NCBI RefSeq assembly: GCF_021018805.1
Contig: NW_026960611.1
Location: forward strand, 2,790,001-2,854,000
DNA from: Prinia subflava
Lineage: Eukaryota; Chordata; Aves; Passeriformes; Cisticolidae
Direction: 5' to 3'
Length of the DNA stretch: 64,000 nucleotides
Each line of letters starts with the position of its first letter. The stretch's first letter is position 1. Below are positions 38,471 to 64,000 of this stretch, one piece after another. The position numbers and the translations under genes were made by a program. Under the pieces are notes generated by a model. It worked only from the letters and a program-made list of their open reading frames with translations, made no database searches and was not told the DNA's origin.

Positions 38471-38472
38471 TC

Positions 38473-38490
38473 TGCTGCCCAACGTGGACA
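38473..38490 (+). promoter_or_regulatory. Primer binding site, tRNA-Lys(1,2)-like
   Basis: The segment tgctgcccaacgtggaca starts two bases after the LTR. Its core gcccaacgtgg matches the tRNA-Lys(1,2) type primer site typical of betaretroviruses, with mismatches at both ends. Confidence 0.65.
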
Positions 38491-38584
38491 AATTGCAAGC
38501 TGTGAGACAAGAAAAAAGAAGAAAAAACCCGTCTTCCATGGCTGCAATCAGAAACCCACGATGTTCTCCGAAGATTGACTGCTA

Positions 38585-39358: not shown

Positions 39359-39640
39359 GTGCTGTGGCCTCTCTGCCAAGCTTCCTTGCCCCGCGCGGCG
39401 CTGGACCCCCTGGCACAGGGCAAAAGGCTGAGTGCAGATACGGCCGTGCCGTGCTCCCACTCCCCCCAGCCAGCACTTGCAGGCTGAGTGGGGAGCAGGG
39501 GCAGCAGCCGTGCTGCCATCATTCCCTCCCGACCGGGACTTGTCTGCTCGGTCCTGGGCCCCCTCCAACCGGCAGGTGGCGGAAAGCTGTGGCCGATCTG
39601 CCGCACCCCCCTGCCCAGCGCAATGTATACGCCCCCGCAC
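39290..39640 (+). repeat. Diverged ~225-bp tandem duplication in gag linker
   Basis: The block around ccgggacttgcccgcccggt (39,308) recurs as ccgggacttgtctgctcggt at about 39,533, followed in both cases by related GC-rich sequence ending in ctgccca or similar. The duplication falls in the GC-rich linker. Copy 1 enters the window at the second unit. Confidence 0.6.
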
Positions 39641-40769
39641 GGAGCGGAGGCTTAGTGAGATGTGTCTGTCGTCTTCCCAGTACCCCAGCCAGCCTGAGCC
39701 TGCTGTGAGAGGGGCGAGTGAGGCTGAAGCGTTGTCATATGTGCACGCTCGCCCTGCCCTGAACTGGGATGAAATTTCTGGTCCTGCATCGCAGCCAAGC
39801 CTGGCTGCTGAGCTGACGAAGCCGTGGTCTGAATGTGCAGCTGTGCTCAAGCCTGTCCCGAGAGCTGTGGGTGTGGTTTCACAGCCTCACGGCCATGCTG
39901 CCCTGTCCTGGGCAGATCTGCCTCCCTTCTGAAGGGAGGTGGCCAAAAGTGATGTCGGTTTTTCTGATGTCATACAACTGATCAGTGTTGAATTTGAGGA
40001 TTTGAGCCTTCCATATGAAATTAGACGCCTGGCTTTGGCGTTATTTGGACCTGTTCAGGTTCCTACCTTTGAAGACAATTGGAAACGACTGGCCACAGAA
40101 GTGGCTGTCCAAAATAGTCAATTGTCTCAAGAAGATCCCTTGTTTGGGATCGGAGCTATTTTGCTTATCGGGAGAAGCGAATATGCTTATCCTGATGTGC
40201 AATTTGGCCTTCCTCAGACTGTCCTGAATCTGTGCAGACACATAGGTATATCTGCACTGGTAAAAACTATGCTATCCTCCTCTCTAAAGCAAGACTTCTT
40301 GGATATAGTCCAGAAGCCAGACAAAACCTTTGTTCAATTTGTAAGGCGTCTGATGCATGCTTTGGAGAAGCAAGTTGAGAATAGCACTTTGAAAATAATA
40401 TTGCTAGAACAATTTGCAAGGATCAATGCTAATGCTTCCTGCCAGAGGCTCCTTGGAAGCATTCCTGAGACTTCTAATGTGCTGGAAATGGTCCAGGCCT
40501 GTGCGGTTCTGGACACCTCTGATCTTATGGTGTCTGCCCCGGCTGCTGCCCCACAGCTGTCCGATAAGGGGCTGAAACGTGAACATAAGACACAGGCAAA
40601 TGTTCAGGCCAGTGGAAAACAGGGAAAGGAGGCACAGAAAGTGACCCCCTTGTTTTTCTGCGCACGGTGTGGCAGGCCAGACCATACTGCAGACATATGT
40701 AAAGCAGTGGTTCATGTTGATGGCCAGCCCTTGCCAAGCCTGAAAAATCGGAAGCAGAGAAAGGGCTGA
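39432..40769 (+). pseudogene. gag: gag capsid-nucleocapsid, gag-only element copy 2
   Basis: A single frame runs from 39,432 to 40,769 with one TGA at 39,930-39,932. The part after the stop (from 39,939, no ATG at its start) is 276 codons and holds capsid. It includes a major-homology-like segment around PDKTFVQFVRRLMHAL near 40,320 and ends with the CCHC zinc knuckle CARCGRPDHTADIC at 40,659-40,700, then a basic tail. The same TGA occurs in copy 1, so it predates their separation. Capsid type is betaretrovirus-like, distinct from the two other betaretrovirus-like lineages in this window. Confidence 0.85.
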
Positions 40770-41713
40770 AGACGTCTGGCGAATGAAACGGTTTCCCAAG
40801 CTCTGGAGCAAGAGCAAGTTTGTTTGGCTGGATTGCAGACAGCATCTGCAGTTTATGAGGTGTTGATGTCACCACAGTAGCAACGGTCATTCTTGGACTC
40901 TTGCGAAGTGCACATTTGTGCAAAGTGGTTTCCACACCCACCTCCCATGTCGCATTCTTTGGGAAAACTCAAATTGCTCAATTTGTGTTTTTAAGTTTTC
41001 TGTCCTCAGGTTTGAGGATCGATGTCACAAAGGCGGCTGCCTCAAGTCTGCCGAGCTGCCTCAAGTGCACTGGACTGTGATCCTTTCTGATCCTGAAACC
41101 TTGTGTACCCTGTGCCACCCTGGTGCCCCCCATCAGAGAAGCCTCTTCAAGATCTGATTGACATGGACACGGATTTAGCCATCCTCTCCTTTTCTGCATG
41201 GCCTCCATTGTGGTTTTGGATCCTGTGGAGCTGCCTGTTGCAGGATGGGGTGGAACAGCGTGATGCTGTGTGAGCCAGCAGGCTGTGTTAATCGTGGACT
41301 CAGAGGAACTGTTTGCGATGGTTCAGTTTTATGTACTGTAGCCATTGTGACCTTTGTGGGGAATGTGCCCGTGGTTTGGGGTTGCGGTTTGGGACAGAAC
41401 TTTTGATTTGAGTGATTTTTTTCTTGGAATGCTCTTGCCTTTGCATCATATAGAAATTTGGAAAATGAGGGTTGTCTGGTCAAACCATTGTAGAATATGC
41501 TCGGGGTACTTTGAGCAGGTTTACTGCAAGGGGATTCAGGGTAAGACCCTGCACGGCAAAGGCAGAATCAGGCCAACAAGCAACCCTCACACCATGACCA
41601 AAATGAAGGTCGGTGAACTTTATACAGGTTTTTTTTTCTTTTTTTTTTCCGTTGTACAATTGTTCATTTTTCTTTTTTTTGTTTTCTTTTTTGTAATAGT
41701 TAAAAGGGTGAGA
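40770..41713 (+). other. 3' non-coding part of gag-only element, copy 2
   Basis: About 940 bases without recognisable pro, pol or env motifs. A T-rich stretch (41,628-41,690) precedes the purine-rich aaaagggtgaga at the LTR boundary. It could contain decayed env, which I cannot demonstrate. Confidence 0.65.
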
Positions 41714-42041
41714 TGTCACCATGAGATTTTACTAGTTGCTGAGCATTCATATTAAAGTAGAAGGTTTTGCACCTTCTCACGCTCCTTTCATGTAAACACC
41801 AGCTATGTTCTATAAACATAGCCATTGTTTTCACATTTCTTGCTGGTACAAAGAAGACTGTGTGACAGTCCCCTTGACCAATGTGGTGAGAGGTGGGAAT
41901 GCCCACTCTCCAATCCATGGTCACCTTGCTAGGAGTATATAATAGGAAGTAACAAACAAAGCAGGAGGATTCTCCCTGCTGCTGCTCTGATCTCCCCAAA
42001 CTCCGGCTCCATGTGTATTTCTGGCGAGGCTCACAGCAACA
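41714..42041 (+). repeat. 3' LTR of gag-only element, copy 2
   Basis: The LTR runs from TGTCACCATGAG to CACAGCAACA, followed by the gtagag target duplication. It is the same length as the 5' LTR with a few substitutions. Confidence 0.9.
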
Positions 42042-42047
42042 GTAGAG

Positions 42048-42551: not shown

Positions 42552-42686
42552 TGATGCCTTGACAGGCTGAAACAGAGGCTAGGCAGAGTGAAAGGAACAA
42601 AGTGAGTATTTATTCAAAATTATGCCCTGGTGTCTCCAGAGCCACAGAAGTGGCCTAGCCCAGATGTTTCCAAGATGGAGACAAAT
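42552..42686 (-). repeat. 3' LTR remnant of minus ERV1-like provirus
   Basis: The segment from tgatgcc to gatggagaca matches the 3' third of the 5' LTR at 47,036-47,442, including tgaataaatactc (a polyadenylation signal on the minus strand). The U3 part is missing where it joins reverse transcriptase. Confidence 0.8.
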
Positions 42687-43387
42687 AAACTACTGTTTCC
42701 TTAACAATGTGTGCTTTGTCTTTTGAAACTCTATACCCACTCAGTCCCAAGAAATTTAACAAACTTACAGTAAGTCGTATACAGTCCTGTCTGGTTCCGG
42801 CTGCGATCAAGATGTCGTCTACATACTGTAGAATAACTGCTTCTGGCTCCTGCCTTTTCCAGTCCTCTAGTTCCTTTGCTAGCTGGTTTCCAAATATAGT
42901 CGGCGAGCACTTAAATCCCTGCGGTAGGACTGACCAGGTAAGTTGACTTTTTCTCCCTGTCTGAGGGTTTTCCCACTCAAAAGCAAAAAGCTCTTGGCTG
43001 TTTTTGTGCACAGGAATGCAAAAAAAGGCATCCTTCAAGTCAACCACAGTAAACCACCCTAACTCGTCTGTCAGCGTAGTCAAAAGGGTATAAGGATTGG
43101 CTACTACTGGGTGTATGTCCTCTGTAATTTTATTAATCACTCTTAGATCTTGTACTAATCGGTAGCTCTTACCATCTGCTTTCCTAATAGCTAAAATGGG
43201 AGTGTTAAATTTAGACTCACATTGCACTAATAAACCATGTTCAAAGAATTTTACAATTATAGGCATTAGTCCCTTACAGCTCTCTAATTTCAAAGGGTAT
43301 TGTTTTTGCCTTACTGGTGTAGCTCCTGGTTTGAGTGTATCGATCACTGGTTCTGCCCATTTGGATCTTCCTGGGATATCACCAGCC
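42687..43387 (-). pseudogene. pol: Reverse transcriptase, 5' half, minus ERV1-like provirus
   Basis: An open minus-strand frame encodes WAGDIPGRSKWAEPV, the fingers (LVQDLRVINKITED), the first catalytic aspartate (FTVVDLKDAFF) and LQYVDDILIAAG, with YVDD at 42,814-42,825. It stops being RT at ETVVYL, where it meets the 3' LTR remnant, so the thumb, RNase H and integrase are gone. The motifs resemble the ERV1-like pol at 20-23 kb. The remaining frame has no internal stop, so the truncation rather than decay is the main damage. Confidence 0.85.
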
Positions 43388-43393
43388 CACACT

Positions 43394-43831
43394 TGTGGAA
43401 ATGTATTTTATGGAAATGGTTTGCTCTGGCTCACCCCTGGAAAATGTATGGTTTGTCCCAAGTCTGTAACCTCCCTGCAGTATCGTGTATCTGTAACCTC
43501 ATTGGCTGGAGAATGTTACCGCACCCCTTTGAACCTCTGTGTTAAGAATGCTAAGGCAAGGGGTCTCGCCCTCTTTGCCCCTCTTCCCCTGGAGGCCTCC
43601 AGACGCTCCCCTTCCCTCTTCTCCCTTCCCCCTCTCCCCTTCCCTTCCCCCACTCCCACAGGACCATGCTCCCTGCCTGGAGTGGGACTCTGAATAAACC
43701 CTCATCTGATCAGCACCCCACCAGCATCTGAAGTCTCTTTGCCTGACAGCACGGGAACACCCATGACCATAGGACCCGGAGGTCTCCCGGGGGACCCTCC
43801 CCGGGAGCACCCCAAAATTTAAACTACAATA
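43394..43831 (+). repeat. Solo LTR inside minus provirus, flanked by CACACT
   Basis: A 438-bp unit runs from TGTGGAAATG to actacaata, collinear with the LTR at 24,140-24,567. The repeat cacact at 43388-43393 and 43832-43837 flanks it; a 4-bp duplication with a TG...CA unit is also possible because the bases are ambiguous. It splits the protease-RT linker between NPIV and WAGD. Confidence 0.88.
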
Positions 43832-49049: not shown

Positions 49050-49221
49050 AAGAATCACAGCATCATAGAATCATTTACATTGGAAAAGACCTTCAAGATC
49101 ACAGAGTCCAACCTAACACTGCCAAGTTCACCACTAAACCATGTCCCTAAGTGCCACACCTACATGTCTTCAGGGGTGGTGACTCAACCACTTTTCTGGA
49201 CAGCTCATTCTAATGCTTTCT
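49050..49221 (-). mobile_element. CR1 LINE, 3' part, left of provirus
   Basis: The + strand reads atcatagaatcatttacatt, aagaccttcaagatc, then ccactaaaccatgtccctaa, the reverse complement of the CR1 3' end. It breaks at 49,221 and resumes at 57,797, so the provirus inserted into it. Confidence 0.85.
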
Positions 49222-49755
49222 TTTTGTTTTTCCCCGGTAGCTTCAGTCGGTGTCTCGGCTGCCTTTGTTGGTCCTGGTTAGGGGTGCACTTACGTACCCC
49301 CCTGTCCAAGCAACTCCGGCAAAGCTCCCGGGCCCAGGCAACACTTAGCAAGCTTAGTTATAGTGATATTCAGCTCTTAGCAGTGATCAGCTCTTTAGCA
49401 GTGATTCTCAGCTCATAAGCTTGCTAAGGTGCCTTGGCAGACGCAGGGAGAGAGAGGAGAAGCGCCGTATGGAGTTCCACAGATGAATCTTTATTAGCTT
49501 CTTCGGTGAAGGGTTCCAGGGACAGCGGCTTCTACTGAGCTGGGGGAAAAGTGGGGTTTTTATAGGGTACAGAGGTTTTGAAAAGGTGTCCAATGGTATG
49601 GTTCGGGGTACAAAGTGACCTATTGTCTTACAGGGAGATAAGCGAGGGTCCAAGCGCGGGAGAAGGGTTATTCTGGCCTAGTCACCATGACTAGGCATTT
49701 CTGCCCTTAAGCAACTGACCGCCACGGGAGCCTACCAGGCTTCCCGGCTGCAACA
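49222..49755 (-). repeat. 3' LTR of complete provirus
   Basis: On the minus strand it begins TGTTGCAGCCGGGAAGCC and, by the target duplication, ends at 49,222 in AAAACAAAA. A TATA box (tataaaa, ~49,557-49,563) and AATAAA (49,490-49,495) read on the minus strand. The last 16 codons of env lie inside it. The purine-rich agaaagtggaa directly upstream is the likely polypurine tract. Confidence 0.9.
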
Positions 49756-51002
49756 ATTCCACTTTCTGTATTTAATAAAAAAGCGTTCCCTATAGTTCTT
49801 TTAAAGCAATAGATAAGGCATGAGAACATAACTAATACAATGACAACTACAATGAAAATCCACAGAATTCCCTTAACAAGAGATGCAACCCATCCTGTTA
49901 ATCCCCATTGACCAAAAAGGTCATTGACCCAGTCTGGGTTCTTTTCTATTTTTAAGTCCTTCACAAGTTCTCTCAGTTTTTGGATGTTTGCATGGATGGA
50001 TTCTGAGCGTGATGAGAGATTGAAGCAACACATCCCTTCGAAGTCTTGGCATCCGTGTCCGTGGGCGAGCAGCAAGAAGTCAATCGCGGCGCGGTTCTGG
50101 AGAGATGCATGTCTTGTGGTTTCCTCATCCTTTAAAAGATCACTCAGGGCAGCAGATGTAGCGTTGGCTTGCTTACTAAGCCAGCAGCCTAAGTGATTTA
50201 TTTCACCAAGGGCCTTAGCTGCAGCTACCCATGGTAAGAATAGGGAGACAGCAATTCTTTTTGGTTTATTCCAATTGTATAATTTGGGATCACAGGTTTC
50301 GTCAAATTCTGTATAGGATCTTTTGTGGCGATTTGCTTCACTTTCTTTTTTCCAATTATGTAACAAGGTAATATTTGGTGTGAGGGTAGAAAGTCTCCCA
50401 AGGCTACAGGGACCTCCCTGCAGGCGTGAGGGGATCCCAGCCCATACTCGGTCACCACAGATGAGAAACATCCCTTTGGGTAGTACTTTGGGATGGATAG
50501 AGGATACAGATATCACGCGAGTGGTGTAATTGCACCAATCCGGATAGTTATAGGCTTTGTTAATGGGTGATATGTCTTTTCTGAATGTGTTTTTTAACTG
50601 ATTAGTTTCTGGCCCATTATTCCTTGGGCATCTATAGTAAAATTTAACACAGTATGCTGCTTTGGTGGACCCCAGCAAGTCCAATTCTTGGGGTTCCTCT
50701 AGGGCATTAGGTAACATTTTTGTCCAATCATCCCAAGTATCTACTGCATTGGGTCTCTTACCTGTGGTGCGGAGGAGCTCAGAGTTATAGACGGGCCAGT
50801 CCTCTGCTACAAAAGGGATCCCTACTAGACATGTGGAAAGTGGGTTATCAACGCTGCCCATGGATAAGCACATGTTATCCTGTTTCAATGTTTTTGCTAA
50901 GGTTACCCAAACATTATGACTAGGCTGGGGGCTAATCCAGCCGCAGGCGTACGGTACGGTGAAGAGCATCCAAACAGAAGTGAGGAGAACACCAGTTTTC
51001 AT
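49707..51002 (-). CDS. env: Env glycoprotein, intact 431-aa frame
   Basis: Env mediates receptor binding and membrane fusion. The frame starts at ATG 51,002 with a hydrophobic signal peptide (about residues 1-20). The surface subunit is short (about 205 residues) and ends at a furin-type RHKR, residues 225-228. The transmembrane subunit shows a fusion-peptide-like segment near 249-262, a heptad region, LQNRAAIDFLLLAHGHGC (301-318), and C-x6-CC at C318, C325 and C326. A membrane span follows at about 377-399, then a short tail. N-glycosylation sites are NYT 158, NIT 210, NAT 280 and NLS 328. C-x6-CC marks alpha/gamma-type Env, unlike the beta-type pol upstream. The C-terminus runs 16 codons into the LTR. 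It is presumably made from a spliced RNA. Confidence 0.92.
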   Translation of the reverse strand: MKTGVLLTSVWMLFTVPYACGWISPQPSHNVWVTLAKTLKQDNMCLSMGSVDNPLSTCLVGIPFVAEDWPVYNSELLRTTGKRPNAVDTWDDWTKMLPNALEEPQELDLLGSTKAAYCVKFYYRCPRNNGPETNQLKNTFRKDISPINKAYNYPDWCNYTTRVISVSSIHPKVLPKGMFLICGDRVWAGIPSRLQGGPCSLGRLSTLTPNITLLHNWKKESEANRHKRSYTEFDETCDPKLYNWNKPKRIAVSLFLPWVAAAKALGEINHLGCWLSKQANATSAALSDLLKDEETTRHASLQNRAAIDFLLLAHGHGCQDFEGMCCFNLSSRSESIHANIQKLRELVKDLKIEKNPDWVNDLFGQWGLTGWVASLVKGILWIFIVVVIVLVMFSCLIYCFKRTIGNAFLLNTESGIVAAGKPGRLPWRSVA

Positions 51003-51316
51003 CTCTGGACAGGGATAAGGCTTCTGATAGGGAATATAAACAAAAATTGTTATCTTTCATGATGGAAGGAAAGGGTTTGGGTTTTTTCCTTCATTCCATT
51101 TCTCTGTTCCTTCCCCCCTCCCCCCCTCTTTTTTTATACAAGGGATGGGTAAGTGGGTGTGAAGTTAGGGGTTTTTGGTAAGAGTTGGGAAAGGGAATAA
51201 TAGGGGTTTTTGGGGTAAAAATTTTCTAAAAAAAGATAATGACATGTAATTCAGAGGACAAGTTTGTGTTCAAGCTATGTCTGGCTTATAGCTTGACTGA
51301 TGCAGCAGAATGTTGT
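51003..51316 (-). other. pol-env spacer of complete provirus
   Basis: About 310 bases between the pol stop and the env start on the minus strand, rich in A and C on that strand. A splice acceptor for env mRNA may lie here or in the end of pol. No accessory frame was recognised. Confidence 0.6.
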
Positions 51317-54145
51317 TCATCTTTTCTGTTTCTTCTGCTGTCGTGGGATGGGTCGGTTTTTTCTTTGGTACGTGGATATTCGGCGACGCCTTCGTCTCCA
51401 GGCAGAACTTGTCTGGTTTTGAGGCGGTCTTGTATTCAACTCAGAAGAACTCTTGTCAGTGTCTGACTGAGTAGTGTTTGTAGTGCCTAGGTATGGTTTT
51501 ATGTGTTTTCCTGGGTACCATCTTGGACCAGATGGTAGTGAAACACACGCATATCCTCTCCCCCAAGTAATTAACTGGAAAGGCCCGGAAATTTGATGAG
51601 TCTCTGGGTCCTTCACTAGCACAGGTGGTTTCTCAGCAAGCTTTGCTTGGGTGGTATTTGCGAAGTGGCGAAGTACTGGAGGGTCGGGCTCTGATGTTGT
51701 ACCATTTAGGAAGTTGATGACATAGAGAGCCTTGCAGAGTCTTTCAACTGGAGATATGATTTTTGTTTCACTTCGCTGCTGATTGAGGACTCTTTTGAGG
51801 GTTTGATGTGTTCTCTCTATGATGGATTGTCCTGTGGGATTTGCAGGTATGCCTGTCTTGTGTTCTATTCCCCAGTTACTGAAGAATTCTTTTAACTTAC
51901 GAGAGGCATAGGCAGGTCCATTATCTGTTTTGATCTGTTTTGGTACTCCCAGGGTAGCAAAGGCAAGGAGGAAGTGCTTTATGGCATGCTGTGTAGTTTC
52001 TCCTGGATGAGATGATGCAAACACTGCTCCAGAAAACGTGTCAACCGATACATGCACATACTTTGACCTTCCAAAAGGTGGGAAGTGAGTGACATCTGTC
52101 TGCCACAGCTGGCAGCTGTTAAGTCCTCGGGGATTGACTCCTGTCCCCACAGATGGTATCTGGTAGCTTTGGCAGTTCGGGCACGTGGCAACAATAGCTT
52201 TTGCTTGATCTTTTGAGAGCTTGAACATTCTAATAAGGGCAGCTGCATTTTGGTGATAAAATGCATGTGACAACTTTGCCTGGGCAAAGATGTCAGGGAT
52301 GTTAGCAGTCTCTAGTGCCATGGCCAAAGCATCTGCTCTCCTGTTCCCTTCTGCAATGATACCTGGGAGGTCAGTGTGTGACCTTACATGCATTACATAG
52401 TAAGGTTGTTTTCTGTGGGAGATTAAACGTATTAATGCAGAAATCAATTGGTGTAACTTTGGATTGGAAACGTCTTTGAGAAGGGCTTGTTCTGCCCTCA
52501 TAGCTATACCTGCGACATATGAAGAGTCTGTAATGAGATTAAAAGGTTCGTCTTTGAATTTCTCAAAGGCTCTGACAACAGCTGCTAACTCTGCAATCTG
52601 TGGAGATCCCTCCACAATTTGGACATCAGATTCCCATTTTTGGGTCTTAGGGTCTTTCCATGTCATTACAGACTTGTGGGATGACCCCGAGCCATCTGTA
52701 AAGACTGTTAGAGCTTTGAGAGGTGTTCTACTCTGTACTAATTTTGGGGTCAGATTAAAGGTTATATTAAAAAGTTTATGTTTTGGGATATGGATGGAAA
52801 TTTGGCCTGTATAGCTATCTAGGGCGTACTGGAGATTTTCATTGGTCTGAAGCAAATGTTCCAGGTCTCCGCCGGTTAATGGCATGTATATGCATGTGAA
52901 CTCACACCCTGCAAGGGAACGGAGGCGAGTTCTGGCCTTTTTTATTAGATGTGCCATGATTTCTTGGAAGGTGGTAATTGTCTTTGTAGGTTGGTTGTTT
53001 GTAAAGATCCACTCAATTATCAATAAAGGGTCTCGAAGCTGAGTATCCCATTGGAAAATCAGTCCATGGAACCGGGGTGCTTTTCCCAGGATGACAAACT
53101 GGAAAGGCAGGCTAGGCTCGAAGCGATGGGCTTGGTGTAAAGATAGGGCTTCTTGGACTTTGGTGATGGCATCTCGGGCTTCTGTTGTAAGAGTGCGTGG
53201 AGAGTCCAGGTCTCCGTTGCCACGGAGAAGGTTGAACAGGGGAGCGAGGTCCTCTGTTGTAATTCCTAGCAGAGGACGTACCCAATTGATGGATCCACAC
53301 AGACTATGTAAGTCTCTCAGAGTTTTTGGGTCATCTCGGATGACGAGTTGCTGGGGTACGATGGTCCGTTCCCGGATCTGGAATCCAAGATAAGTCCATG
53401 GGTTGGTGTACTGTATTTTGTCTTCACGGATCTCGAATCCTGCTTTTTCTATGGTTTCAATAGTCTTTGTAACCGCTTTGTCTAGGTAGGCTTTGTCTGA
53501 TGCACAGATCAGGATGTCATCCATATAGTGGTAGATGATTGCATCTGGAAATAGGCTCCGAACGGGAGACAAAACACGAGCAACATACCATTGGCATATG
53601 GTAGGTGAGACCTTGAGACCTTGGGGAAGAAAAAGCCAATGATATCTTTTGAGTGGAGCCTCTCTGTTAAGAGAGGGGACAGAAAAAGCAAACCTTGGAG
53701 CGTCCTGGGGGGGCAGCGGGATGCTGAAGAAACAGTCTTTAATATCTATGATGGCAAGTGTCCAGTCTCGAGGCAACATCGATGGTGAAGGCAGTCCAGG
53801 CTGAAGGGGGCCCATATCCTCAATTACCTCATTGATTTTACGCAGGTCCTGGAGGAGCCTCCACCTGTCCGTTCCAGGCTTTTGCAGTACAAAGACTGGG
53901 GTGTTCCAAGGGCTGGTGGTCTCGACGATGTGACCTTTGGCAAGCTGTTCTTCTACAAGTGCTTGTAGTGCGCACAGTTTTACTTTAGGGAGGGGCCACT
54001 GTTCAATCCAGATCGGGGTTTGGCATTTCCAGGTAAGCTGAGGGGTAGATTCTGGTAGTGTGCGCTCCTCAGTGGCCCCAATTAGAAATCCTGACTGGGA
54101 ATTTGTAAGGAAGCTCCCCATTGGGATAGAACATCCCTTCCCCAA
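51317..54145 (-). CDS. pol: Pol: reverse transcriptase, RNase H, integrase, intact
   Basis: Pol copies viral RNA into DNA and integrates it. It is reached by a -1 shift from pro at about 54,085-54,091, so the ORF's first ~20 codons overlap pro. RT shows IIDIKDCF (first Asp) and YHYMDDILI (YMDD at ~53,516-53,527). RNase H shows TVFTDGSG, IAELAAVV, ITDSSYV and RRADALA. Integrase has the HHCC zinc domain (HAFYH and CPNC), then TDVTHF, KTDNGPAY and SIIERT, with exactly 35 residues between the second Asp and Glu. A basic tail (RRRRRR) ends the protein. All catalytic residues I looked for are present, with no internal stop in about 920 codons. The type is betaretrovirus-like (YMDD rather than YVDD). 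Confidence 0.93.
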   Translation of the reverse strand: MGKGCSIPMGSFLTNSQSGFLIGATEERTLPESTPQLTWKCQTPIWIEQWPLPKVKLCALQALVEEQLAKGHIVETTSPWNTPVFVLQKPGTDRWRLLQDLRKINEVIEDMGPLQPGLPSPSMLPRDWTLAIIDIKDCFFSIPLPPQDAPRFAFSVPSLNREAPLKRYHWLFLPQGLKVSPTICQWYVARVLSPVRSLFPDAIIYHYMDDILICASDKAYLDKAVTKTIETIEKAGFEIREDKIQYTNPWTYLGFQIRERTIVPQQLVIRDDPKTLRDLHSLCGSINWVRPLLGITTEDLAPLFNLLRGNGDLDSPRTLTTEARDAITKVQEALSLHQAHRFEPSLPFQFVILGKAPRFHGLIFQWDTQLRDPLLIIEWIFTNNQPTKTITTFQEIMAHLIKKARTRLRSLAGCEFTCIYMPLTGGDLEHLLQTNENLQYALDSYTGQISIHIPKHKLFNITFNLTPKLVQSRTPLKALTVFTDGSGSSHKSVMTWKDPKTQKWESDVQIVEGSPQIAELAAVVRAFEKFKDEPFNLITDSSYVAGIAMRAEQALLKDVSNPKLHQLISALIRLISHRKQPYYVMHVRSHTDLPGIIAEGNRRADALAMALETANIPDIFAQAKLSHAFYHQNAAALIRMFKLSKDQAKAIVATCPNCQSYQIPSVGTGVNPRGLNSCQLWQTDVTHFPPFGRSKYVHVSVDTFSGAVFASSHPGETTQHAIKHFLLAFATLGVPKQIKTDNGPAYASRKLKEFFSNWGIEHKTGIPANPTGQSIIERTHQTLKRVLNQQRSETKIISPVERLCKALYVINFLNGTTSEPDPPVLRHFANTTQAKLAEKPPVLVKDPETHQISGPFQLITWGRGYACVSLPSGPRWYPGKHIKPYLGTTNTTQSDTDKSSSELNTRPPQNQTSSAWRRRRRRISTYQRKNRPIPRQQKKQKR

Positions 54146-54870
54146 AGGGTGATGGGGGCCCTTACCACAAATGGGCGGATAGTTGCCAACTTGCCTTCAG
54201 GCCCTTCGATGAGCACGTTGTGCTTGCTTCGCATGGACATTGTGGCTCCACCGATCCCTGAAATCATACCTGGTACCGGTTCTAGTTCCCAGTTTGCAGG
54301 CCATTCTGAGCGTGCGATGAGGCTCAGGTCTGCGCCTGAGTCCAGGAGTCCCAGTCGGTGGATCTTCTCACCTTTGCAGGATAGGCCACACTCAATGGTA
54401 GGCCTATTGGATCCCAAAATTTGTGCCCACATTGCTATAGGGTTGAGAGGAAGCTGTTCCTTGTGATTTTTTGGGAGTAGAAAGGCTTGTGCAATTGGAG
54501 TTCCCTTTAAAAGAAAAAATGGTAAGTCTGTGCAGCACAGCTGGACCAAGATTTCTTGACCTGGGTGCACTGTTTGTACTGCTGGAAAAACAAAAATTTC
54601 ATCCGGCCCATTAACGGTATCACCTATAATTAAAATGTCAAAAGGACCTCCTTTTGGCCCATACTTGCCAGTAGGGACACGATAAACATCCCTCTTTTTT
54701 AAGTCAATGGATAAAGCAGTTACCAGCTGGCGCCGGGTTCCCGTCTGTATTGCTCTGTATGTTGGATCCCCTTCTTGTGACGTGGCATCTCCTGGAATGA
54801 TGCATGGTTGGGTCTGGATGGCTTTTGATTTGTTGTCTTGGCGTGGAGCCTGACCACGCTCTGCTGGCAG
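54082..54870 (-). CDS. pro: Pro: dUTPase-like segment and aspartic protease, intact
   Basis: The frame is entered by -1 shifting at 54,870-54,876 and stops at 54,082-54,084. Its first part includes YGPKGGPFDILIIGD and a segment ending KGTPIAQAFLLP, which fits the dUTPase-like domain of betaretroviral pro. I did not identify all catalytic dUTPase motifs, so activity is uncertain. The protease follows with GLLDSGADLSLI (D-S-G-A), a glycine-rich flap-region segment (GMISGIGG) and LWGRDVLSQWG near the end. Retropepsin dimers process the polyproteins. The frame overlaps gag at its start and pol at its end. Confidence 0.88.
   Translation of the reverse strand: MPAERGQAPRQDNKSKAIQTQPCIIPGDATSQEGDPTYRAIQTGTRRQLVTALSIDLKKRDVYRVPTGKYGPKGGPFDILIIGDTVNGPDEIFVFPAVQTVHPGQEILVQLCCTDLPFFLLKGTPIAQAFLLPKNHKEQLPLNPIAMWAQILGSNRPTIECGLSCKGEKIHRLGLLDSGADLSLIARSEWPANWELEPVPGMISGIGGATMSMRSKHNVLIEGPEGKLATIRPFVVRAPITLWGRDVLSQWGASLQIPSQDF
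54085..54091 (-). promoter_or_regulatory. pro-pol -1 frameshift heptamer G GAT TTC
   Basis: On the minus strand GGATTTC lies directly before the pro TAA stop (54,082-54,084), in the register G GAT TTC of the pro frame. It resembles the betaretroviral pro-pol slippery type G GAT TTA. Confidence 0.65.
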
Positions 54871-56921
54871 TTTCCCGAACGCTGCTGGAAGCGCTGCTGA
54901 TTTTGGGGTCTGTGGTAAGTGTTACGGGGAATTTGCATAGGTGACCTATGTGGACAGTCCTTTATAAAATGTCCAAAGTCTCCACAGTGAAAGCAGCGGG
55001 TCTGGTCTTGGGAAGTCACTACTGCAAATGCACCAGAAACTCCTTCTGCAATACCCTTAGCAACTGCTTGGGCTACTGTGTTTTCAGTGGAGAGGTGACG
55101 TGTACAGCTTTCCACCATTTGTTCTATGGTAGGTTCTGTATCCAAGGGTAAGGCTCTCAGAATAGTTTTACATTGTTCATTAGCATTGCTCATGGCAAGT
55201 TTGCATAACAGTTCTTTTCTTGCCTCTATGCTCTCTATCTGTTTATCCAGAGCATCTTTAATTCTGTCCACAAATTTTATAAAGCTTTCATCTACTCCTT
55301 GTTTAATATTAGAGAAGTGTAGGGTAGGGATAGAGTCATCTGGGGTAAGAAGTAAGGAAGTCTTAGCTGCAATAGCCAAATCTCGTATTGCTGCCTCAGA
55401 CAAAGTTTTAGCTTGATCTGAGGGTTTCTGCAAATTGCCTTCTCCAGCCAGCTGTTCAACTGAAAAACTTTGCCCAGTAGGATCTTTAGCGTATGTGTCT
55501 GATAATGTTTTTAATTGTTTTTTCCAATGCCTTTCCCATAGCATATATTCTGCCGGGGATAGGAGGCAGTGAGCAATATTCTTAACATCACGGGGTATTA
55601 AAACATGTGCCGAGAAGATAGCTTCTAGGAAATTTTTAAAAATATGTGAACTTCTGCCATGTTCTTTGGCTACTTTTCGAAGTTCTATGAGCTCTTTGTT
55701 TGTATTAGGTTCCCACATAATTTTAGTGGAGGCACCACCTCTTTTTCCCTTTATATAAGTTACAGGGAAGGCAGAAATTTTCTGAGCCAACTCCCAGTCA
55801 CCTGCGTGAGTGGCTTCCATTTTAATTAAAGCCCATGGATCAATGTCATCTTCATCAGAACTGAGCTCAGTATCACTACTATCCTCAGATGAGGAGTGCT
55901 TTTTCTGGCGTTTTGGAGTGGCATTTTGCAGGGGTGTGGGGTGCTGTAGACAGGGCTGCAAGACCTGGCTACGGGAGGCGCAGCTGGGACAGGGTTGTGA
56001 GGCCTGTAAAAGCGTTATGCTACCATGGGGTGTCTCAGAAGTACCATGAGGGTTTAGTGGCTGCAGGGTTTGGGGATAAGGTAGCGACGGGTGGGTGGGA
56101 TTGCATGGGGTCGCGTTCGCTACAGAGGGAGTGGGGGGGGTGAGGTGTGGGGGTGCAGAGTCTATAGGAGCAGGCACAGTTGCATTCGAAGATACTGCGG
56201 GGAAAGGGTGATGGCCACACATGAGATAAGCAGGTCCTGCAGGCTTTGCAGGCACACAGGAAGGGTTTGGGATCAGCGCGAGGGAGGGGGAAGGTGGGGG
56301 CGGCGCGGAGAGGGGGGGTGGGGACAGCACGGAGTCCGTGTTCTCCGTCCCCGGGGGGGCGGCTGAAGGTGGAGGAGGGGGGGCCGAGGGGTGGGGGTGG
56401 GGGCTTTGGGGAGAGGGCGTGGGGGTGCCGGGGGCCGCGGTGGTCCCGGGGGCGCAGGGCGGGAGCGGGGCAGGAGCGGCGCATCCGCGCCCTACCCCCC
56501 TGTGGCCGGCATCTGGAGAGAGGGGGAGGAGATTAGCATCTGAAAGGACACAGTCTGGCGGGAGAGATAAGGATGGACAGCTCTCTCCGGGGGGACTGGG
56601 AGACTTCTTAACATTTCCTTGTTCTACTACTTTGGTAATATTATGAAAAATGGGCAGAAATCGTGTAACAGAGAAATCTCCATTAAGTTGGGAAGTGTAT
56701 ATTTTTATCCCCACCGAGTCCCAAAAAGAATCTAAAGTGATAGATTGTGTATTAGTATCAGGAAACTGGGAAATGATCCATTTGATAAACTTTTTCAAGT
56801 TAGTTTTTAAGATTTTACTTTTAGAGAAAGAAGGGTTGTTAAGAGATAGAATTTCTAAGATTTCTAAATATAAGTCTCTCTCGTTCTGGGATCGTTTAAA
56901 TTTACTATTTTTTGATCCCAT
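54720..56921 (-). CDS. gag: Gag polyprotein, intact 733 aa
   Basis: Gag builds the particle. The ATG at 56,921 (MGSKNSKF) gives Gly-2 and a nearby Ser for N-myristoylation; the open frame extends 32 codons upstream but without an ATG. Matrix spans about 1-105. A long proline-rich region (about 115-330) contains PSAP, a late-domain motif. Capsid spans roughly 345-610, with its major homology region at about 539-558 (KQGVDESFIKFVDRIKDAL). Nucleocapsid has one CCHC knuckle, CFHCGDFGHFIKDC, at 643-656, where many betaretroviruses have two. The frame is uninterrupted to TAA at 54,720. It overlaps pro by about 150 bases, across the shift site. Confidence 0.92.
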   Translation of the reverse strand: MGSKNSKFKRSQNERDLYLEILEILSLNNPSFSKSKILKTNLKKFIKWIISQFPDTNTQSITLDSFWDSVGIKIYTSQLNGDFSVTRFLPIFHNITKVVEQGNVKKSPSPPGESCPSLSLPPDCVLSDANLLPLSPDAGHRGVGRGCAAPAPLPPCAPGTTAAPGTPTPSPQSPHPHPSAPPPPPSAAPPGTENTDSVLSPPPLSAPPPPSPSLALIPNPSCVPAKPAGPAYLMCGHHPFPAVSSNATVPAPIDSAPPHLTPPTPSVANATPCNPTHPSLPYPQTLQPLNPHGTSETPHGSITLLQASQPCPSCASRSQVLQPCLQHPTPLQNATPKRQKKHSSSEDSSDTELSSDEDDIDPWALIKMEATHAGDWELAQKISAFPVTYIKGKRGGASTKIMWEPNTNKELIELRKVAKEHGRSSHIFKNFLEAIFSAHVLIPRDVKNIAHCLLSPAEYMLWERHWKKQLKTLSDTYAKDPTGQSFSVEQLAGEGNLQKPSDQAKTLSEAAIRDLAIAAKTSLLLTPDDSIPTLHFSNIKQGVDESFIKFVDRIKDALDKQIESIEARKELLCKLAMSNANEQCKTILRALPLDTEPTIEQMVESCTRHLSTENTVAQAVAKGIAEGVSGAFAVVTSQDQTRCFHCGDFGHFIKDCPHRSPMQIPRNTYHRPQNQQRFQQRSGNCQQSVVRLHAKTTNQKPSRPNHASFQEMPRHKKGIQHTEQYRREPGASW
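54870..54876 (-). promoter_or_regulatory. gag-pro -1 frameshift heptamer G GGA AAC with hairpin
   Basis: On the minus strand GGGAAAC is in the register G GGA AAC of the gag frame, a classic slippery heptamer. Ten bases downstream, gcgtgg and ccacgc form a 6-bp stem with loop tcaggct (54,841-54,859). The loop's ggct can pair with agcc further downstream, allowing an H-type pseudoknot. Confidence 0.75.
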
Positions 56922-57256
56922 GGTAATGTGGTCCCGTTCCCCTCCCAGCAGAAAAAGAGAAAAAAAAAATAAAAAGAAAAAGAAAAAGACCCGAGTAAAG
57001 AATTTTTTTGCGCGCAAAAAAGGCTCTAATCAACTTACTCCTCAGCCGAATGTGGGTCACAAAGCTGCTGGTAGGGTGGTCTGCCAACGTCTGACTCCTC
57101 AGAGCTGGACTGGGAGGGTCGTCAGACGCCTTCTGCAGAGAAATTCTTCTATAACGGAGAAGTTGCCTTCAGAAGGACTCTGAGTGAACCAAGGCAGTAA
57201 CTCTTCGCGGTGAAGGCTGCTCTCCAGGGGTTTTCCACCCACGTTGGTTCGCCAGG
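56922..57256 (-). promoter_or_regulatory. 5' leader with lysine-like primer binding site
   Basis: On the minus strand, tggcgaaccaacgtgggt (57,237-57,254) starts two bases after the LTR end set by the target duplication. It matches the tRNA-Lys(1,2) primer type apart from a one-base insertion and neighbouring changes. The rest of the leader (~310 bases) presumably holds the packaging signal and splice donor, which I did not locate. Confidence 0.65.
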
Positions 57257-57790
57257 TTTTGTTTTTCCCCGGTAGCTTCAGTCGGTGTCTCGGCTGCCTT
57301 TGTTGGTCCTGGTTAGGGGTGCACTTACGTACCCCCCTGTCCAAGCAACTCCGGCAAAGCTCCCGGGCCCAGGCAACACTTAGCAAGCTTAGTTATAGTG
57401 ATATTCAGCTCTTAGCAGTGATCAGCTCTTTAGCAGTGATTCTCAGCTCATAAGCTTGCTAAGGTGCCTTGGCAGACGCAGGGAGAGAGAGGAGAAGCGC
57501 CGTATGGAGTTCCACAGATGAATCTTTATTAGCTTCTTCGGTGAAGGGTTCCAGGGACAGCGGCTTCTACTGAGCTGGGGGAAAAGTGGGGTTTTTATAG
57601 GGTACAGAGGTTTTGAAAAGGTGTCCAATGGTATGGTTCGGGGTACAAAGTGACCTATTGTCTTACAGGGAGATAAGCGAGGGTCCAAGCGCGGGAGAAG
57701 GGTTATTCTGGCCTAGTCACCATGACTAGGCATTTCTGCCCTTAAGCAACTGACCGCCACGGGAGCCTACCAGGCTTCCCGGCTGCAACA
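57257..57790 (-). repeat. 5' LTR of complete provirus
   Basis: A 534-bp LTR reads the same as 49,222-49,755 at every position compared by eye. It is followed on the + strand by ctttct (57,791-57,796), the copy of the target site. Confidence 0.9.
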
Positions 57791-58052
57791 CTTTCTAACT
57801 TTTTTGATGAAGAATTTTTCCTTAATATCCAATTTAAGCCTCCTCTGGTACAACTTGAGGCCTTTCCCTCTTGTCCTATTGCTTGTTACCTGGGAGAAGA
57901 GATCAGTCCTGTCTTTGCTACAGCCTCCTTTCAGGTAGTCATAGAGAGTGATAAAGTCTCCTCTTAGCCTCCTTTCTTCCAGGCTAAACAATCTTACTTC
58001 CTTCTTCTGCTCCTCAAAAGATTGTTCTCTGGATCCTTCACCAGATTTGTTG
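57791..58052 (-). mobile_element. CR1 LINE, continuation right of provirus
   Basis: The CR1 reverse complement continues: ctaacttttttgatgaagaa, cctttccctcttgtcctatt, gataaagtctcctcttagcc. It joins 49,221 across the provirus. The right limit is approximate. Confidence 0.85.
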
Positions 58053-59549: not shown

Positions 59550-60265
59550 ATCTTTGAGAGATCCCTCCGCAGCAGGCGACCTTGCACAACTAACAGCTGA
59601 TGTACCTCCAGTGCCGGCTCCTATGACTCCGATGCCTGCTGCCCTACCCCCGCTGCCTCACCTCCTGGGTCACCCAGCCGCGTTCCCGCCTTCCGCATCC
59701 CTGGCACAGAGTGGGACTACTTTGTATCACAACTTGTCCATACAGTCCCAACGAAACACACAAACCATGCAACGAGGAGGGGGAGGGTGGAATACGACAG
59801 CTGCTTCAATAAATACAGGACAGACAGAGAACTATTTTGCCCCTGCAAATGACAACCCTTTGATCCCAATACAAGGGAATTCCAAAAAACAACTAAGTCT
59901 GTTTCCAAACAGCTCCAGAGTCCCCCCGGTGTTTGGGACAGATTTCTCAACCCAAAATGAGACACTAAACCCTGAAAATTTGCTACCATTTATCCCAAAA
60001 TTAGAAAACTTCCAGAAGTGTTTTGATAATTTTCAGTTAACAGACTGGCATGAAGTCAGACGCCAGATTTGCAAAGAGGAAAGTCTAAATCCTCTAGCTA
60101 TGCCTTTGCTATTCAGCCAGCAAGCCGAAGGTCCAAGAACATGGGTAGCTATCCCACCTCATGAGATAAAATAATTACGAAAAGCAGTGAAAGACAGTGG
60201 CATTTGCTCGCCATACTTTAAACAACTGCGGAAAAGTACCCTAGAAGGACACACGCTTACACATG
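59550..60265 (+). pseudogene. gag: gag linker and capsid N-terminal part, betaretrovirus-like ERV
   Basis: A frame open to 60,172 begins inside a proline-rich linker (VPAPMTPMPAALPPLP), with the matrix and 5' LTR missing. It runs into capsid (QLTDWHEVRRQICKEESLNP near 60,040-60,100). A TAA at 60,172-60,174 interrupts capsid, and the same frame continues after it up to the LTR insertion at 60,266. This is a third betaretrovirus-like lineage, distinct from the gag-only family and from the complete provirus. Confidence 0.72.
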
Positions 60266-61644
60266 TGTCATGGGTTGGCACTGGCCAGATGTTAATGCAC
60301 CCATGAATATATGTTTTTTCTCTAACAACTCCTGTGGGATGTGATCAGGAACAGAGCAGAGCAGGCTTAAATCTTGAAAACAAAAAAAACCCACCAAAAC
60401 TTTATTAATTACATAAGAACAGGGACAGAAATACTCTTAAACACACACAGAGACAGAAATAAAAACTTCTTAGAACATTTCTTCTCCCAGTTTCTACCTC
60501 CCCACACATCACTTTTCACAGACCAACCTTTGGGTTTTAGATCAAACAATCACTAGTCAAAAAAAAACTAATCTTCAATTCAGCAAGGGAGAGAGGAGTC
60601 TCTCTCGCACCACAGACTGTTCCTCAGAAAACACGGGTCCACCCCTTATGTGTTCCCATGTCACCCGTGGCACCGCCCAGAGAAAGTCTGCCAGGGTGAC
60701 TCTCTCTTTTTCCTATGTCCAGCGCTCTCACCGCTGTCTCATAGGCCAAAACTACATACAGGGCTTTTTAAGGATGCTGCATGCCGAACTCTCCCCTTTT
60801 TACCCAGGGGCCGGGGTTCCAGGAGCAGGTCTGCCCTGAGGGCAGAGGGTGCCACCTCACCCTCCCCCTCTTTTCTCTGCTCGCTCTACTCTTCCAAGTG
60901 CCAGTCACTGTAGCAAAAGCAAGGGCAGCTGCATCCACCCAAAAATGCAGTTTATGTTCAAAAGAGACTTAAGTTCAGTCCATGGCTGGCATTATGCAAG
61001 AGAATTCTAGCTCAAAAGGCTACTCCTCTCATTCTTCCATCGGGTTCCTTCCAATCATGCTTTATCATCTCGGTCTCAGGCCGCTTCCCTCTCTCCGAAA
61101 ACCACTAGTCATGAGAATCAATGTCTAAGAAAAGTTTCTTTCTGCCAAGCAAGGGTTAACAGTTTCTTCTCGGCAGGGTGCTGCAGGCTGAGGCACTCCC
61201 AGGCTCCGCAAACTCCCACGTGGCTCGGCACCTTCTCCCGGAGTTTGGGGGGAGGAGGGGGGTGAGCACACACAGAAGGCACTTCCACAGTTTTCCACCC
61301 CTCCATCCTGGACGGGGCAGCTCAGTTCCAGTCCTGTCCATTCTCTTCTCCCCCCGGGCCCCAGCTTACTTTAGTTCCACCGCGTGGTTGTCCTGAGCCT
61401 GGCCACGTGGCTTCCCCCTCCCCCACTCAGCCCAGAGCTGAGCAGGGGAGAGGAGATGTTTCCACTGCTGAAACCGGAACCCAAAAGAGACTGAACCCCC
61501 TAGACTCCTGCTTTTAACTCTTTGTGTCCTCAGAGGCGTGTCTAAACCTCTGAGTGACTAATCCAGGTGCCAGCAGAAAAGCTGATCACTGACTGGACTG
61601 CCTACATCCCCCTGGAAAAATTCACCTCCCCCCCAACCACGACA
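60266..61644 (-). repeat. ERVL-type solo LTR, copy 3, inside gag, flanked by ACATG
   Basis: A 1379-bp unit runs from TGTCATGGGTTGGCAC to AACCACGACA. The exact 5-bp repeat acatg lies at 60261-60265 and 61645-61649. Sense is minus, with an AATAAAG polyadenylation signal on that strand at about 60,400. It is the fullest of the three copies and splits capsid. Confidence 0.92.
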
Positions 61645-61649
61645 ACATG

Positions 61650-62457
61650 TAAAAATCTTGCTAGTATAATTCTCACAGACTCAAAATATAAGTTATGGGA
61701 ACTGAAATGGAGAAGGATGCTTACAGGGGTATTGGCAATTTACAGGCAAAAAACTGATGTAAACCTTCACCCCCTTACCATGTCTAAGCTGACTGGTGAC
61801 CCTTCCGATGATCAGAATGATAATCAACTGAATTTACCCAGAATGGCATTTGATGACATTAAAAAAATGGCTTGCAGAGCCTTTTTGCAAATTCAGCTTG
61901 CAGGGAGTTTTGAAAAAGCCTATAACCTGATTAGCCAAGAGTTGTATGAACCATTTACCGCATTTGTGGACCAGATAATAGAAGCAGCAGAAAGGCAATG
62001 CGGCGATGATATAGCTCGCCCAATAATGATATGGGACATTACTGTAAATAATGCCAATGCAGAATGTAAAAGAGTAATCAAAGCCCTAGGAAAAGAAAGA
62101 CCCACAGTACCTGAAATGATTGATGCCTGTAACAAAATTGGAAGTCCACAGCAAGTGGCAACTATCCAAGCAAATGAACTTGGAAAGACTTTAGGAGAAA
62201 AAATTGAGAGGGCTCTTACAGCTCAAACAGCACAGGCAGCTGCCCAGGCAGCACAAGTAGAAGCACGAGACCAAAAACTTACTGAAATCCTAGCTGCTTT
62301 GCACCTAAACACTCAGCAACAAGGCAACACTATGACTGTTATGCAAACCACTGTAACTTCAGGACCTTGCTACTTCTGTAAAAAACCCAGTCATATTGTG
62401 AGAAATTGCCCAGAAATCAAAAAGGGTGCACAAGCACTGCATCACTGCCCTGCCTGA
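61650..62457 (+). pseudogene. gag: gag capsid C-terminal part and nucleocapsid, betaretrovirus-like ERV
   Basis: The same frame as before the LTR continues here without a stop for about 270 codons. Capsid is recognised by LYEPFTAFVDQIIEAAERQ in the major-homology position and the following NNANAECKRVIKAL helix. An alanine/glutamine-rich spacer leads to the zinc knuckle CYFCKKPSHIVRNC (62,368-62,409). A second knuckle would follow but holds a TGA at 62,455-62,457 in place of its second Cys and a TAG a few codons later. Confidence 0.85.
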
Positions 62458-63358
62458 AAGAAGGGAAAGCATGTTGCCTAGCAGTGTCAATTTAGACATG
62501 ATATTAGAGAAACCCACTCTCCAAAAAACTCGAAAGTGAGTGCGCAATGCCATCACGCGATGGAATAAGTAGTGGCACCCCAAACACCTGAGGCGAAATT
62601 CATGAATGCCCTGACCCCGGGGCACTCCGCTACATTGCCAGCCAAATCCCAGGTAATGACCCAGACTTAGTACCCACAGGGTCCTGGTGTACTTTGGCAA
62701 CCTCCAAACCAACAAACTGTTTGAAAGACAATGGCTACGAGCATATTTCATCAGGTATTACAGAGACTTCACAAAAAAGACAAGACTTTTTAGATTTCGG
62801 TAAAGAAAGAAAGAGCATCCTGGGACTGCTTGTTTTGCCTTGTGTTATGTCTGTTAACTGCAATGAAGAATTACTAGTGCTAGCCAATGCCTGCTATCCC
62901 CCACTGCATATTCCACCCAGAACGCCTATAGCTATTGCTATAGCACTGCCAATGCGGACTGCAGATCAAATGCCACCATGCTGTTTTTCAGTCTTTCCTG
63001 AAAATCCTGAGGTTCTATGGGTTCAACATATAAGTAAACAACGACCAATGATAACTTGTGAATTGTCAAATAGTGGGGTTCAAGTTCATATCAAGGGGAT
63101 GATTGATAAGGGGGCAGAAAGTTTTTGTTGTCTCTTACTATAGCTGGCCAACAGATTGGAAGCTGGTAACTCCCCCAGGCGCTCTCACAGGCATTGGAGG
63201 TATCACTCCGTGCTTGCGAAGCGAATCTGTAATCAGTATTACAGGACCACAAGGGAAGAAGGCATTGATCTGCCCCTATGTAGTGCAGAAACCCATCACA
63301 GTGTGGGGAAGAGATTTGCTTTCAGAATGGGGAGCTAAAATTGAACTGGATTTTTCGT
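62458..63358 (+). pseudogene. pro: dUTPase-like and protease region, betaretrovirus-like ERV
   Basis: The frame from 62,694 to 63,143 encodes a segment with PPLHIPPRTPIAIAIALP, which has a counterpart in the dUTPase-like part of the complete provirus. The protease active site reads GMIDKGAES, with Lys where Ser or Thr is required, so it would be inactive. A frameshift lies near 63,110-63,140. The C-terminal part (TGIGGITPCLRS, VWGRDLLSEWG) continues in another frame to a stop at 63,358. Confidence 0.72.
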
Positions 63359-63499
63359 AGGGGCCACTGAAGCACTCAGTACCTTAAAACTGACCTGGAA
63401 AACTGACACCCCTGTCTGGGTCGACCAGTGGCCTCTGTCAGATAATAAGCTGAGTGCCCTCAGAGAACTAGTGGCTGAACAACTACAAAAAGGCCACAC
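63359..63499 (+). pseudogene. pol: Reverse transcriptase start, betaretrovirus-like ERV, truncated
   Basis: About 45 codons ([20 protein letters not shown] and [11 protein letters not shown]) correspond to the first part of RT in the complete provirus. They end at 63,499, where another element begins. No catalytic motif remains in the window. Confidence 0.7.
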
Positions 63500-64000
63500 T
63501 GTTGGGGGTTAGATTTGGTGTTTTTTTTTTCTCTTCTCACAGAATTTTTTCCCATAAGTTTCCAAAAGCCTTGATGACTACTTAGAACAAAAAGAGTGCT
63601 TGAGGGATATAGCAGCACGAGGCTACACCTATTGTTTTTGAGTCCCTGGGAGTGTCCCTCAGAGGGGAGAGATGATGAGCTTTGGGAAAGGCAAAAAAGA
63701 CAGATCTGGGGGAGGGGGAGGCACTCTTGCTCTCAGCGCCGAGGAGGACGGTCAGGCTGCCCTCTGCCTCTGCCTCGTCCTGGGAAATCTATCGTCATCT
63801 GCTGTGTACCCGGGAATCCTGAACTTGCTTTCTCCAGCCTCTCCCCCCACCGCCGCTGCTTCTTCGGACCTTTGAGGCTCTCCTGCTACTCTGTAGCCCT
63901 GCACTGCCCAGCCCTGCCGGGACACCCCTGCTGCTCCAGCTGCCAGCGCAGAGCTCCTCATCTCATCCACCAGCCCGGGACTTTTCCTTCCTTCCAGTTC
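63500..64000 (+). mobile_element. LTR and leader of a further ERV, running off the window
   Basis: The sequence changes at TGTTGGGGGTTAGATTTGG, which has an LTR-like TG start, exactly inside the RT frame. From about 63,775, ctcgtcctgggaaatctatc and what follows are related to the leader of the minus ERV1-like provirus (46,771-47,035). An element with that leader therefore seems to begin here. The LTR's own end and polyadenylation signal were not identified, and the other end lies beyond the window. Confidence 0.5.

What the first reader, a model, noticed from the sequence alone, without database searches (positions are those of the whole stretch)
49222..57790. Complete provirus with LTRs that read as identical and all frames open
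The two 534-bp LTRs show no difference by eye, the 6-bp target duplication is exact, and gag, pro, pol and env have no internal stop. Catalytic residues of protease, RT, RNase H and integrase are in place. Such a copy is recent and may be insertionally polymorphic or still expressed, in a neighbourhood where every other ERV is broken.
Basis: partly seen in the sequence, partly recalled or inferred. Interest (0 to 1): 0.85.

Follow-up and report, generated by a model that had tools for sequence, protein, structure and literature searches.

The report
Young songbird retrovirus with odd ends
This is a recent, open-framed endogenous retrovirus of a songbird (most likely the tawny-flanked prinia), one of at least 22 near-identical copies in that genome; its family combines two retrovirus lineages and joins host DNA through an unusual end.

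Summary
A provirus lies on the minus strand, 49222-57790. Its two LTRs match at 534 of 534 bases, the 6-bp target duplication is exact, and gag, pro, pol and env are open with catalytic residues in place. No LTR difference means an age below about 1.4 My (95%) at the zebra finch mutation rate. The genome is Prinia subflava, inferred from three matching contig lengths. The copy is not alone: 22 env copies are full length at 98% or more, 20 of 22 without a stop. Of 21 readable LTR pairs, 7 are identical; all 21 sum to 21 differences: a recent burst.

Two features go beyond a routine ERV. (1) The gag-pro-pol is betaretrovirus-like, the Env alpharetrovirus-like ('avian gamma-type'). (2) The LTR ends in CAAAA, not CA: 23 of 25 readable insertions show an exact 6-bp duplication at that boundary, 0 of 25 at the canonical CA.

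Polymorphism and expression are untested; W linkage is inferred only. Best filed as a new variant of a known kind.

The parts
57791..57796 (-). target-site duplication, 5' side of provirus (CTTTCT on +)
57257..57790 (-). 5' LTR, 534 bp; TATAA at LTR position 192 (another at 394), AATAAA at 261
57257..57260 (-). non-canonical U5 terminus (...ACAAAA instead of ...CA)
57237..57254 (-). primer-binding site, two bases (CC) after the LTR; same 18 bases in 22 of 29 other copies' pieces, 7 pieces had no hit
57038..57038 (-). predicted splice donor (GTAAG)
   Evidence: consensus match only
54720..56921 (-). gag, 733 aa from ATG (CA, one CCHC zinc knuckle, PSAP)
54870..54876 (-). gag/pro -1 slippery heptamer G GGA AAC in gag frame
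54082..54921 (-). pro open frame (279 aa stop to stop)
54478..54732 (-). all-beta domain upstream of the protease, probably a degenerate dUTPase
   Evidence: model, inferred
54094..54426 (-). aspartic protease, DSG triad at 54334-54342
54085..54091 (-). pro/pol -1 slippery heptamer G GAT TTC in pro frame, just before the pro stop
51317..54145 (-). pol: RT, thumb, RNase H, integrase (open from 54196)
51228..51228 (-). predicted env splice acceptor (TAG after a T tract starts here; other candidates at 51577, 51026, 51007)
   Evidence: consensus match only
49707..51002 (-). env, 431 aa; last codons lie in the 3' LTR
50319..50330 (-). SU/TM furin-type site RHKR (residues 225-228)
50025..50051 (-). 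CX6CC motif (residues 318-326)
49222..49755 (-). 3' LTR, identical to the 5' LTR
49216..49221 (-). target-site duplication, 3' side

Best explanation
It is a young member of a recently multiplying class II endogenous retrovirus family of (by inference) Prinia subflava. Shown from sequence: complete LTRs; open gag, pro, pol and env; pro and pol each in the -1 frame of the gene before, with shift-type heptamers; an Env of the alpharetrovirus ('avian gamma') type on a betaretrovirus-like gag-pro-pol; many recent insertions. Inferred mechanism: LTR-driven RNA; Gag, Gag-Pro and Gag-Pro-Pol made by two frameshifts; Env from a spliced RNA; cleavage of Env at RHKR, SU-TM linkage through CX6CC and fusion by an internal, Cys-flanked peptide; tRNA-primed reverse transcription; integrase removes the two bases (CC) before the primer site and joins the resulting ...CAAAA end and the TG end 6 bp apart. 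The family spread through the germ line mostly within the last million years or so, by retrotransposition or reinfection. Copies have collected on a small set of contigs that are probably the W chromosome (inferred).
For: LTR identity and TSD; open frames and motifs. 22 full-length env copies at >=98%, 20 of 22 without stops. 21 of 22 with both LTRs readable: 7 at zero differences, sum 21, mean K 0.0019, about 0.47 My at 2.0e-9/yr. 24 different duplications among 25 readable insertions. Integrase identity 120/255 to 7usf (MMTV by recall), 95/255 to 7jn3 (RSV by recall), 99/255 between those two. Protease closest to M-PMV entries, CA to ERV-K Gag entries ahead of RSV CA. TM closest to ASLV. 112 of the 120 Env relatives listed (356 found) show the Cys-flanked stretch plus CX6CC; 74 of 120 also the cleavage string. 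Three gene models from Hirundo and Zosterops fuse class II pol with this kind of Env.
Against: No RNA, protein or second-individual data. Host named by three matching contig lengths only. Protease triad differs from that of relatives, effect unknown. Pol differs from relatives at 7 of 298 positions that are >=95% conserved. Zero LTR differences could in part reflect gene conversion. No tree against named reference retroviruses was built; placement rests on similarity and layout, and dUTPase is not seen by Pfam. The W assignment was not tested and the contig grouping was made after seeing the data.
Confidence: 0.87

Rival explanations
1. An older insertion whose LTRs were made identical by gene conversion, or falsely identical by assembly collapse.
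For: Zero differences alone cannot tell age from conversion; three between-copy LTR pairs of 231 are also identical.
Against: Within-copy differences are 0-4 and the between-copy median is 6, so LTRs are not homogenised across loci; gag, pro, pol and env are all open; 20 of 22 young copies, this one included, have stop-free env.
Confidence: 0.07
2. The copy or its env is kept by selection as a host gene (syncytin-like or restriction factor) rather than being merely young.
For: Env frame is open and databases name some relatives 'syncytin-A-like' (names as given by the source).
Against: All four frames, both LTRs and the duplication are intact, and 21 other env copies are as similar; nothing singles out env or this locus.
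Confidence: 0.04
3. The CAAAA end is an alignment artefact and the LTR ends at the usual CA.
For: A run of A follows CA, so a sliding boundary is possible in one copy. Two of 25 insertions lack an exact 6-bp match even at CAAAA (one shares 5 bp, one has 5 of 6).
Against: Shifting the end from -6 to +3 bases gives 0 of 25 exact duplications at every offset but 0, and 23 of 25 at offset 0.
Confidence: 0.03

Closest known systems
Betaretroviruses (MMTV, M-PMV, HERV-K) and class II bird ERVs annotated as ERVK
   Same: gag, pro and pol in three frames with two -1 shift-type sites; protease nearest M-PMV, CA nearest ERV-K Gag, IN nearest 7usf and RT nearest 7sr6 (MMTV and HERV-K by recall); probable dUTPase-like domain before the protease
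   Different: Env is not of the beta type; DSG protease triad; LTR end not CA
Alpharetroviruses (ASLV/RSV)
   Same: Env TM: cleavage site, first Cys nine residues into TM, 35 residues between the flanking Cys, CX6CC; TM 110 bits to ASLV by profile
   Different: pro lies in its own frame; integrase 95/255 identical to 7jn3 (RSV by recall) against 120/255 to 7usf; SU only about 228 aa up to the cleavage site
Recombinant bird ERV of Henzy and colleagues (described in passages of PMC3758190 and cited in PMC9967133; the 2014 paper itself not held)
   Same: class II gag-pol with a foreign Env in birds
   Different: there the Env is called gamma-type; here it is the avian gamma type
Filovirus GP

Membership tests
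Betaretrovirus-like gag-pro-pol | pro in a frame separate from gag and pol, two -1 shifts | tested here: met
   frames and heptamers GGGAAAC and GGATTTC in frame; shifting itself not shown
Betaretrovirus-like gag-pro-pol | dUTPase domain in the pro frame | tested here: inconclusive
   no Pfam dUTPase match; model is all-beta there and the three best viral matches span both domains
Betaretrovirus-like gag-pro-pol | Pol closer to beta than to alpha references | tested here: met
   IN 120/255 v 95/255 (species labels recalled); similarity only, no rooted tree
Betaretrovirus (type B) | beta-type TM, CXnC without the third Cys | tested here: not met
   CX6CC at residue 318; definition from PMC3758190
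Alpharetrovirus | protease in the gag frame (recalled) | tested here: not met
   pro is -1 to gag
Avian gamma-type Env | CX6CC | tested here: met
Avian gamma-type Env | internal fusion peptide about nine residues after the cleavage site, flanked by two Cys | tested here: met
   Cys 237 and 273 after RHKR 225-228; definition from PMC3758190; disulfide not shown
Canonical retroviral LTR | 5' TG ... CA 3' joined to host DNA | tested here: not met
   TG present; 3' end is CAAAA, 23 of 25 duplications fit there and 0 of 25 at CA
Recent ERV | near-zero LTR divergence and exact duplication | tested here: met
Polymorphic or expressed provirus | empty allele in the species; transcripts | not testable with these tools
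   no other individual or RNA held; no empty-allele search was sent, as the genome search stopped answering

The most novel reading that the evidence does not exclude
A currently spreading bird retrovirus lineage whose integrase has given up the terminal CA that is (recalled) nearly universal in retroviruses: it cuts at a fixed two bases from the viral DNA end and joins an AA end, while carrying an alpharetrovirus-type Env on a betaretrovirus-type core, and perhaps still circulating as an infectious virus in Prinia.
Probability: 0.45. Interest if true: 0.72.

Novelty: new variant of a known kind. Interest (0 to 1): 0.5.

Why it matters
It gives a dated natural series of 21 insertions in one bird, mean age about half a million years, with which to ask whether a retrovirus is colonising a germ line now. 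The CAAAA end is a natural test of what integrase needs at the viral DNA end. [quoted passage not shown] If the copy-rich contigs are the W, it is also a case for the W-refugium idea (PMC8310711).

Tried and rejected
Rejected: a beta-type Env (CX6CC found); a lone copy; the canonical CA end.

Led nowhere: a viral-contig scan with Env found nothing. tRNA and Rfam scans of the window found nothing. The protein search with gag returned only 2 hits (only the 7981 candidates sharing most words were scored). The primer tRNA was not identified; by recall the site resembles a lysine-tRNA type with differences. VIA-align rows for the pro model covered only the protease (no dUTPase row is listed), so the dUTPase reading rests. 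Papers: searches (3 papers; 10; 0; 1; 1; 15 of 27 listed; 12 of 236 listed) were read as listings, save the papers named in the text; none listed showed a report of this Env and core pairing or of this LTR end. That covers open-licence PMC only. PMC11009239 was seen in passages and gave no rate. Three papers looked up by id were not held. One find request was malformed.

W test: a W/Z gene family search (PF02513) and a search for all LTR copies (solo LTRs included) were sent repeatedly and never answered. A search for an empty allele was planned but never sent. The W reading is inferred: nine size-ordered contigs C36-C44 (43.3 Mb, 3.9% of 1.12 Gb) hold 12 of 22 young copies, 63 of all 101 env rows lie on contigs C36-C52, and a 103-Mb contig follows at C53. 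The grouping was made after seeing the data.

Rows dropped: 29 of the other 100 env rows were sampled, the best full or near-full ones by eye; one row of similar rank, C38:3543261 (91%, residues 1-414), was left out. Of the 29, 3 had no 5' LTR hit in the piece and 2 more had an incomplete LTR end, so 24 gave a readable junction, 25 with the window.

Full report
What is there. On the minus strand of the window lies a complete provirus. The LTRs at 57257-57790 (5') and 49222-49755 (3') agree at all 534 positions, and CTTTCT flanks them on both sides. gag opens at the ATG at 56921; pro (open 54921-54082), pol (from 54145) and env (from 51002) carry no stop. Pfam and PDB searches find capsid, zinc knuckle, protease, RT, thumb, RNase H, integrase and Env. 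Catalytic motifs are present. The protease has DSG; 28 of 120 pol relatives matched my motif search and all 28 have DTG. DSG is, by recall, also the RSV form.

How old. With 0 of 534 differences and 2.0e-9 per bp per year (zebra finch, PMC12047795, passages read) the median age is 0.32 My and the 95% limit 1.4 My. The control provirus at 38143-42041, with an exact GTAGAG duplication and a canonical ...CA end, has LTRs at 315 of 329 columns: about 9 My from mismatches alone, 11 My with gap columns counted.

Whose genome, and how many copies. The own-genome search answered once: the window is C42:2790001-2854000 of a 1.12-Gb genome. Contig lengths 153,903,191, 103,208,101 and 3,460,022 equal those listed for Prinia subflava proteins P0040, P0041 and P0004, so I take the host to be that species (taxonomy). 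The env query gave 101 rows, a lower bound by the tool's own note; 22 are full length at >=98%, and 20 of 22 have no stop. I fetched LTR and flank pieces for 29 other copies, 21 from the young set and 8 older. For the young set with the window, 21 of 22 pairs were readable: 7 with no difference, 10 with one, 4 with two to four, 21 in all, mean age about 0.47 My. Six of the eight older copies gave a pair, with 4 to 29 mismatches, two of these from incomplete LTRs. Between young copies the median 3' LTR difference is 6 over 231 pairs, with three pairs identical, so the loci are separate insertions and not homogenised.

The end of the LTR. In 25 readable insertions (the window and 24 of 29 others) I slid the 3' boundary from -6 to +3 bases. 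An exact 6-bp duplication appears in 23 of 25 at the CAAAA boundary and in 0 of 25 at every other offset, the canonical CA (-3) included. The two exceptions share 5 bp or 5 of 6. The last eight bases are AAACAAAA in 24 and AAACTAAA in 1. There are 24 different duplications. In the window the LTR is followed by CC and then the primer site TGG..., the same 18 bases in 22 of the 29 other pieces, 7 without a hit. So trimming of two bases from the linear end would leave exactly the joined end. The 5' end is the ordinary TG. That retroviral ends are nearly always CA is recalled, not looked up; the one search on it was read as a listing.

A mosaic. Layout (three frames, shift-type sites GGGAAAC and GGATTTC in the right frames), integrase identity (window to 7usf 120/255, window to 7jn3 95/255, 7usf to 7jn3 99/255; these entries are MMTV and RSV by recall), and PDB ranking of protease (M-PMV first) and capsid (ERV-K Gag ahead of RSV) point to a betaretrovirus-like core. 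RT is nearest 7sr6 (HERV-K by recall), but I recognised no alpharetrovirus RT among the 60 of 334 rows shown, so that ranking compares few genera. Upstream of the protease the model is all-beta (mean pLDDT 67.5), and the three best viral matches span both domains, in two python ERVs and a prairie dog retrovirus: probably a worn dUTPase, though Pfam does not see it. Env is different: RHKR at 225-228, Cys 237 and 273 around an internal stretch, CX6CC at 318, an anchor near 370-400, and ASLV as the best TM match (82 bits single, 110 bits profile). [quoted passage not shown] Of the 120 Env relatives listed out of 356, 113 have CX6CC, 112 the Cys-flanked pattern, and 74 also the cleavage string in place; they come from many passerines and some other birds. 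Three database gene models (P0206 Zosterops, P0230 and P0235 Hirundo) join class II pol, 61-65% identical to ours, to an Env 43-49% identical; two of the three meet my strict Env pattern and the third fails it. So the pairing looks like an established passerine lineage and not an accident of this locus; gene models can be fused wrongly, so this is support and not proof. I saw no paper that describes it in the listings.

Where the copies sit. Contigs C36-C44 form a size-ordered run of 43.3 Mb (3.9%) and hold 12 of the 22 young copies; 63 of 101 env rows lie on C36-C52; C53 is 103 Mb. Bird W chromosomes are known to hoard full-length ERVs (PMC8310711, one section read, and passages). W linkage is therefore likely, but it was not tested.

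How it works. Transcription, double frameshifting, splicing, entry and integration are inferred from anatomy. Repeated recent integration is shown by the copies. Whether it spreads by cells being reinfected or within germ cells is open; stop-free env in 20 of 22 copies leans toward reinfection having mattered, by inference.

Verdict. It is one of many, and the family, more than the copy, is the finding: a young burst, a mosaic genome and a non-canonical integration end.

Noticed in passing
window 38143-42041 and 1-2515: A 3.9-kb LTR element with a capsid/zinc-knuckle frame and no pol match inside it, TSD GTAGAG; a 94% copy of its right part (39540-42042) reaches the window start. Looks like a non-autonomous gag-only ERV.
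   Followed up: partly
window 57237-57254: Primer-binding site of constant 18 bases (22 of 29 other pieces) that fits no tRNA I can name; resembles a lysine-tRNA type with differences (recalled).
   Followed up: partly
window 54334-54342, pro residues 194-196: Protease triad DSG although all 28 relatives that matched the motif search have DTG.
   Followed up: partly
window 31239-32298, 60262-61648, 15876-17230: Repeats of one family at about 75-91% identity, next to class II gag/pro/pol fragments at 61636-63503.
   Followed up: no
window 20067-23067 and 42658-43437: Fragments of other retroviral pol genes, one with an H2C2 integrase domain.
   Followed up: no
genome contigs C36-C52: 63 of the 101 env rows lie on these contigs, far more than their share of the genome.
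   Followed up: partly
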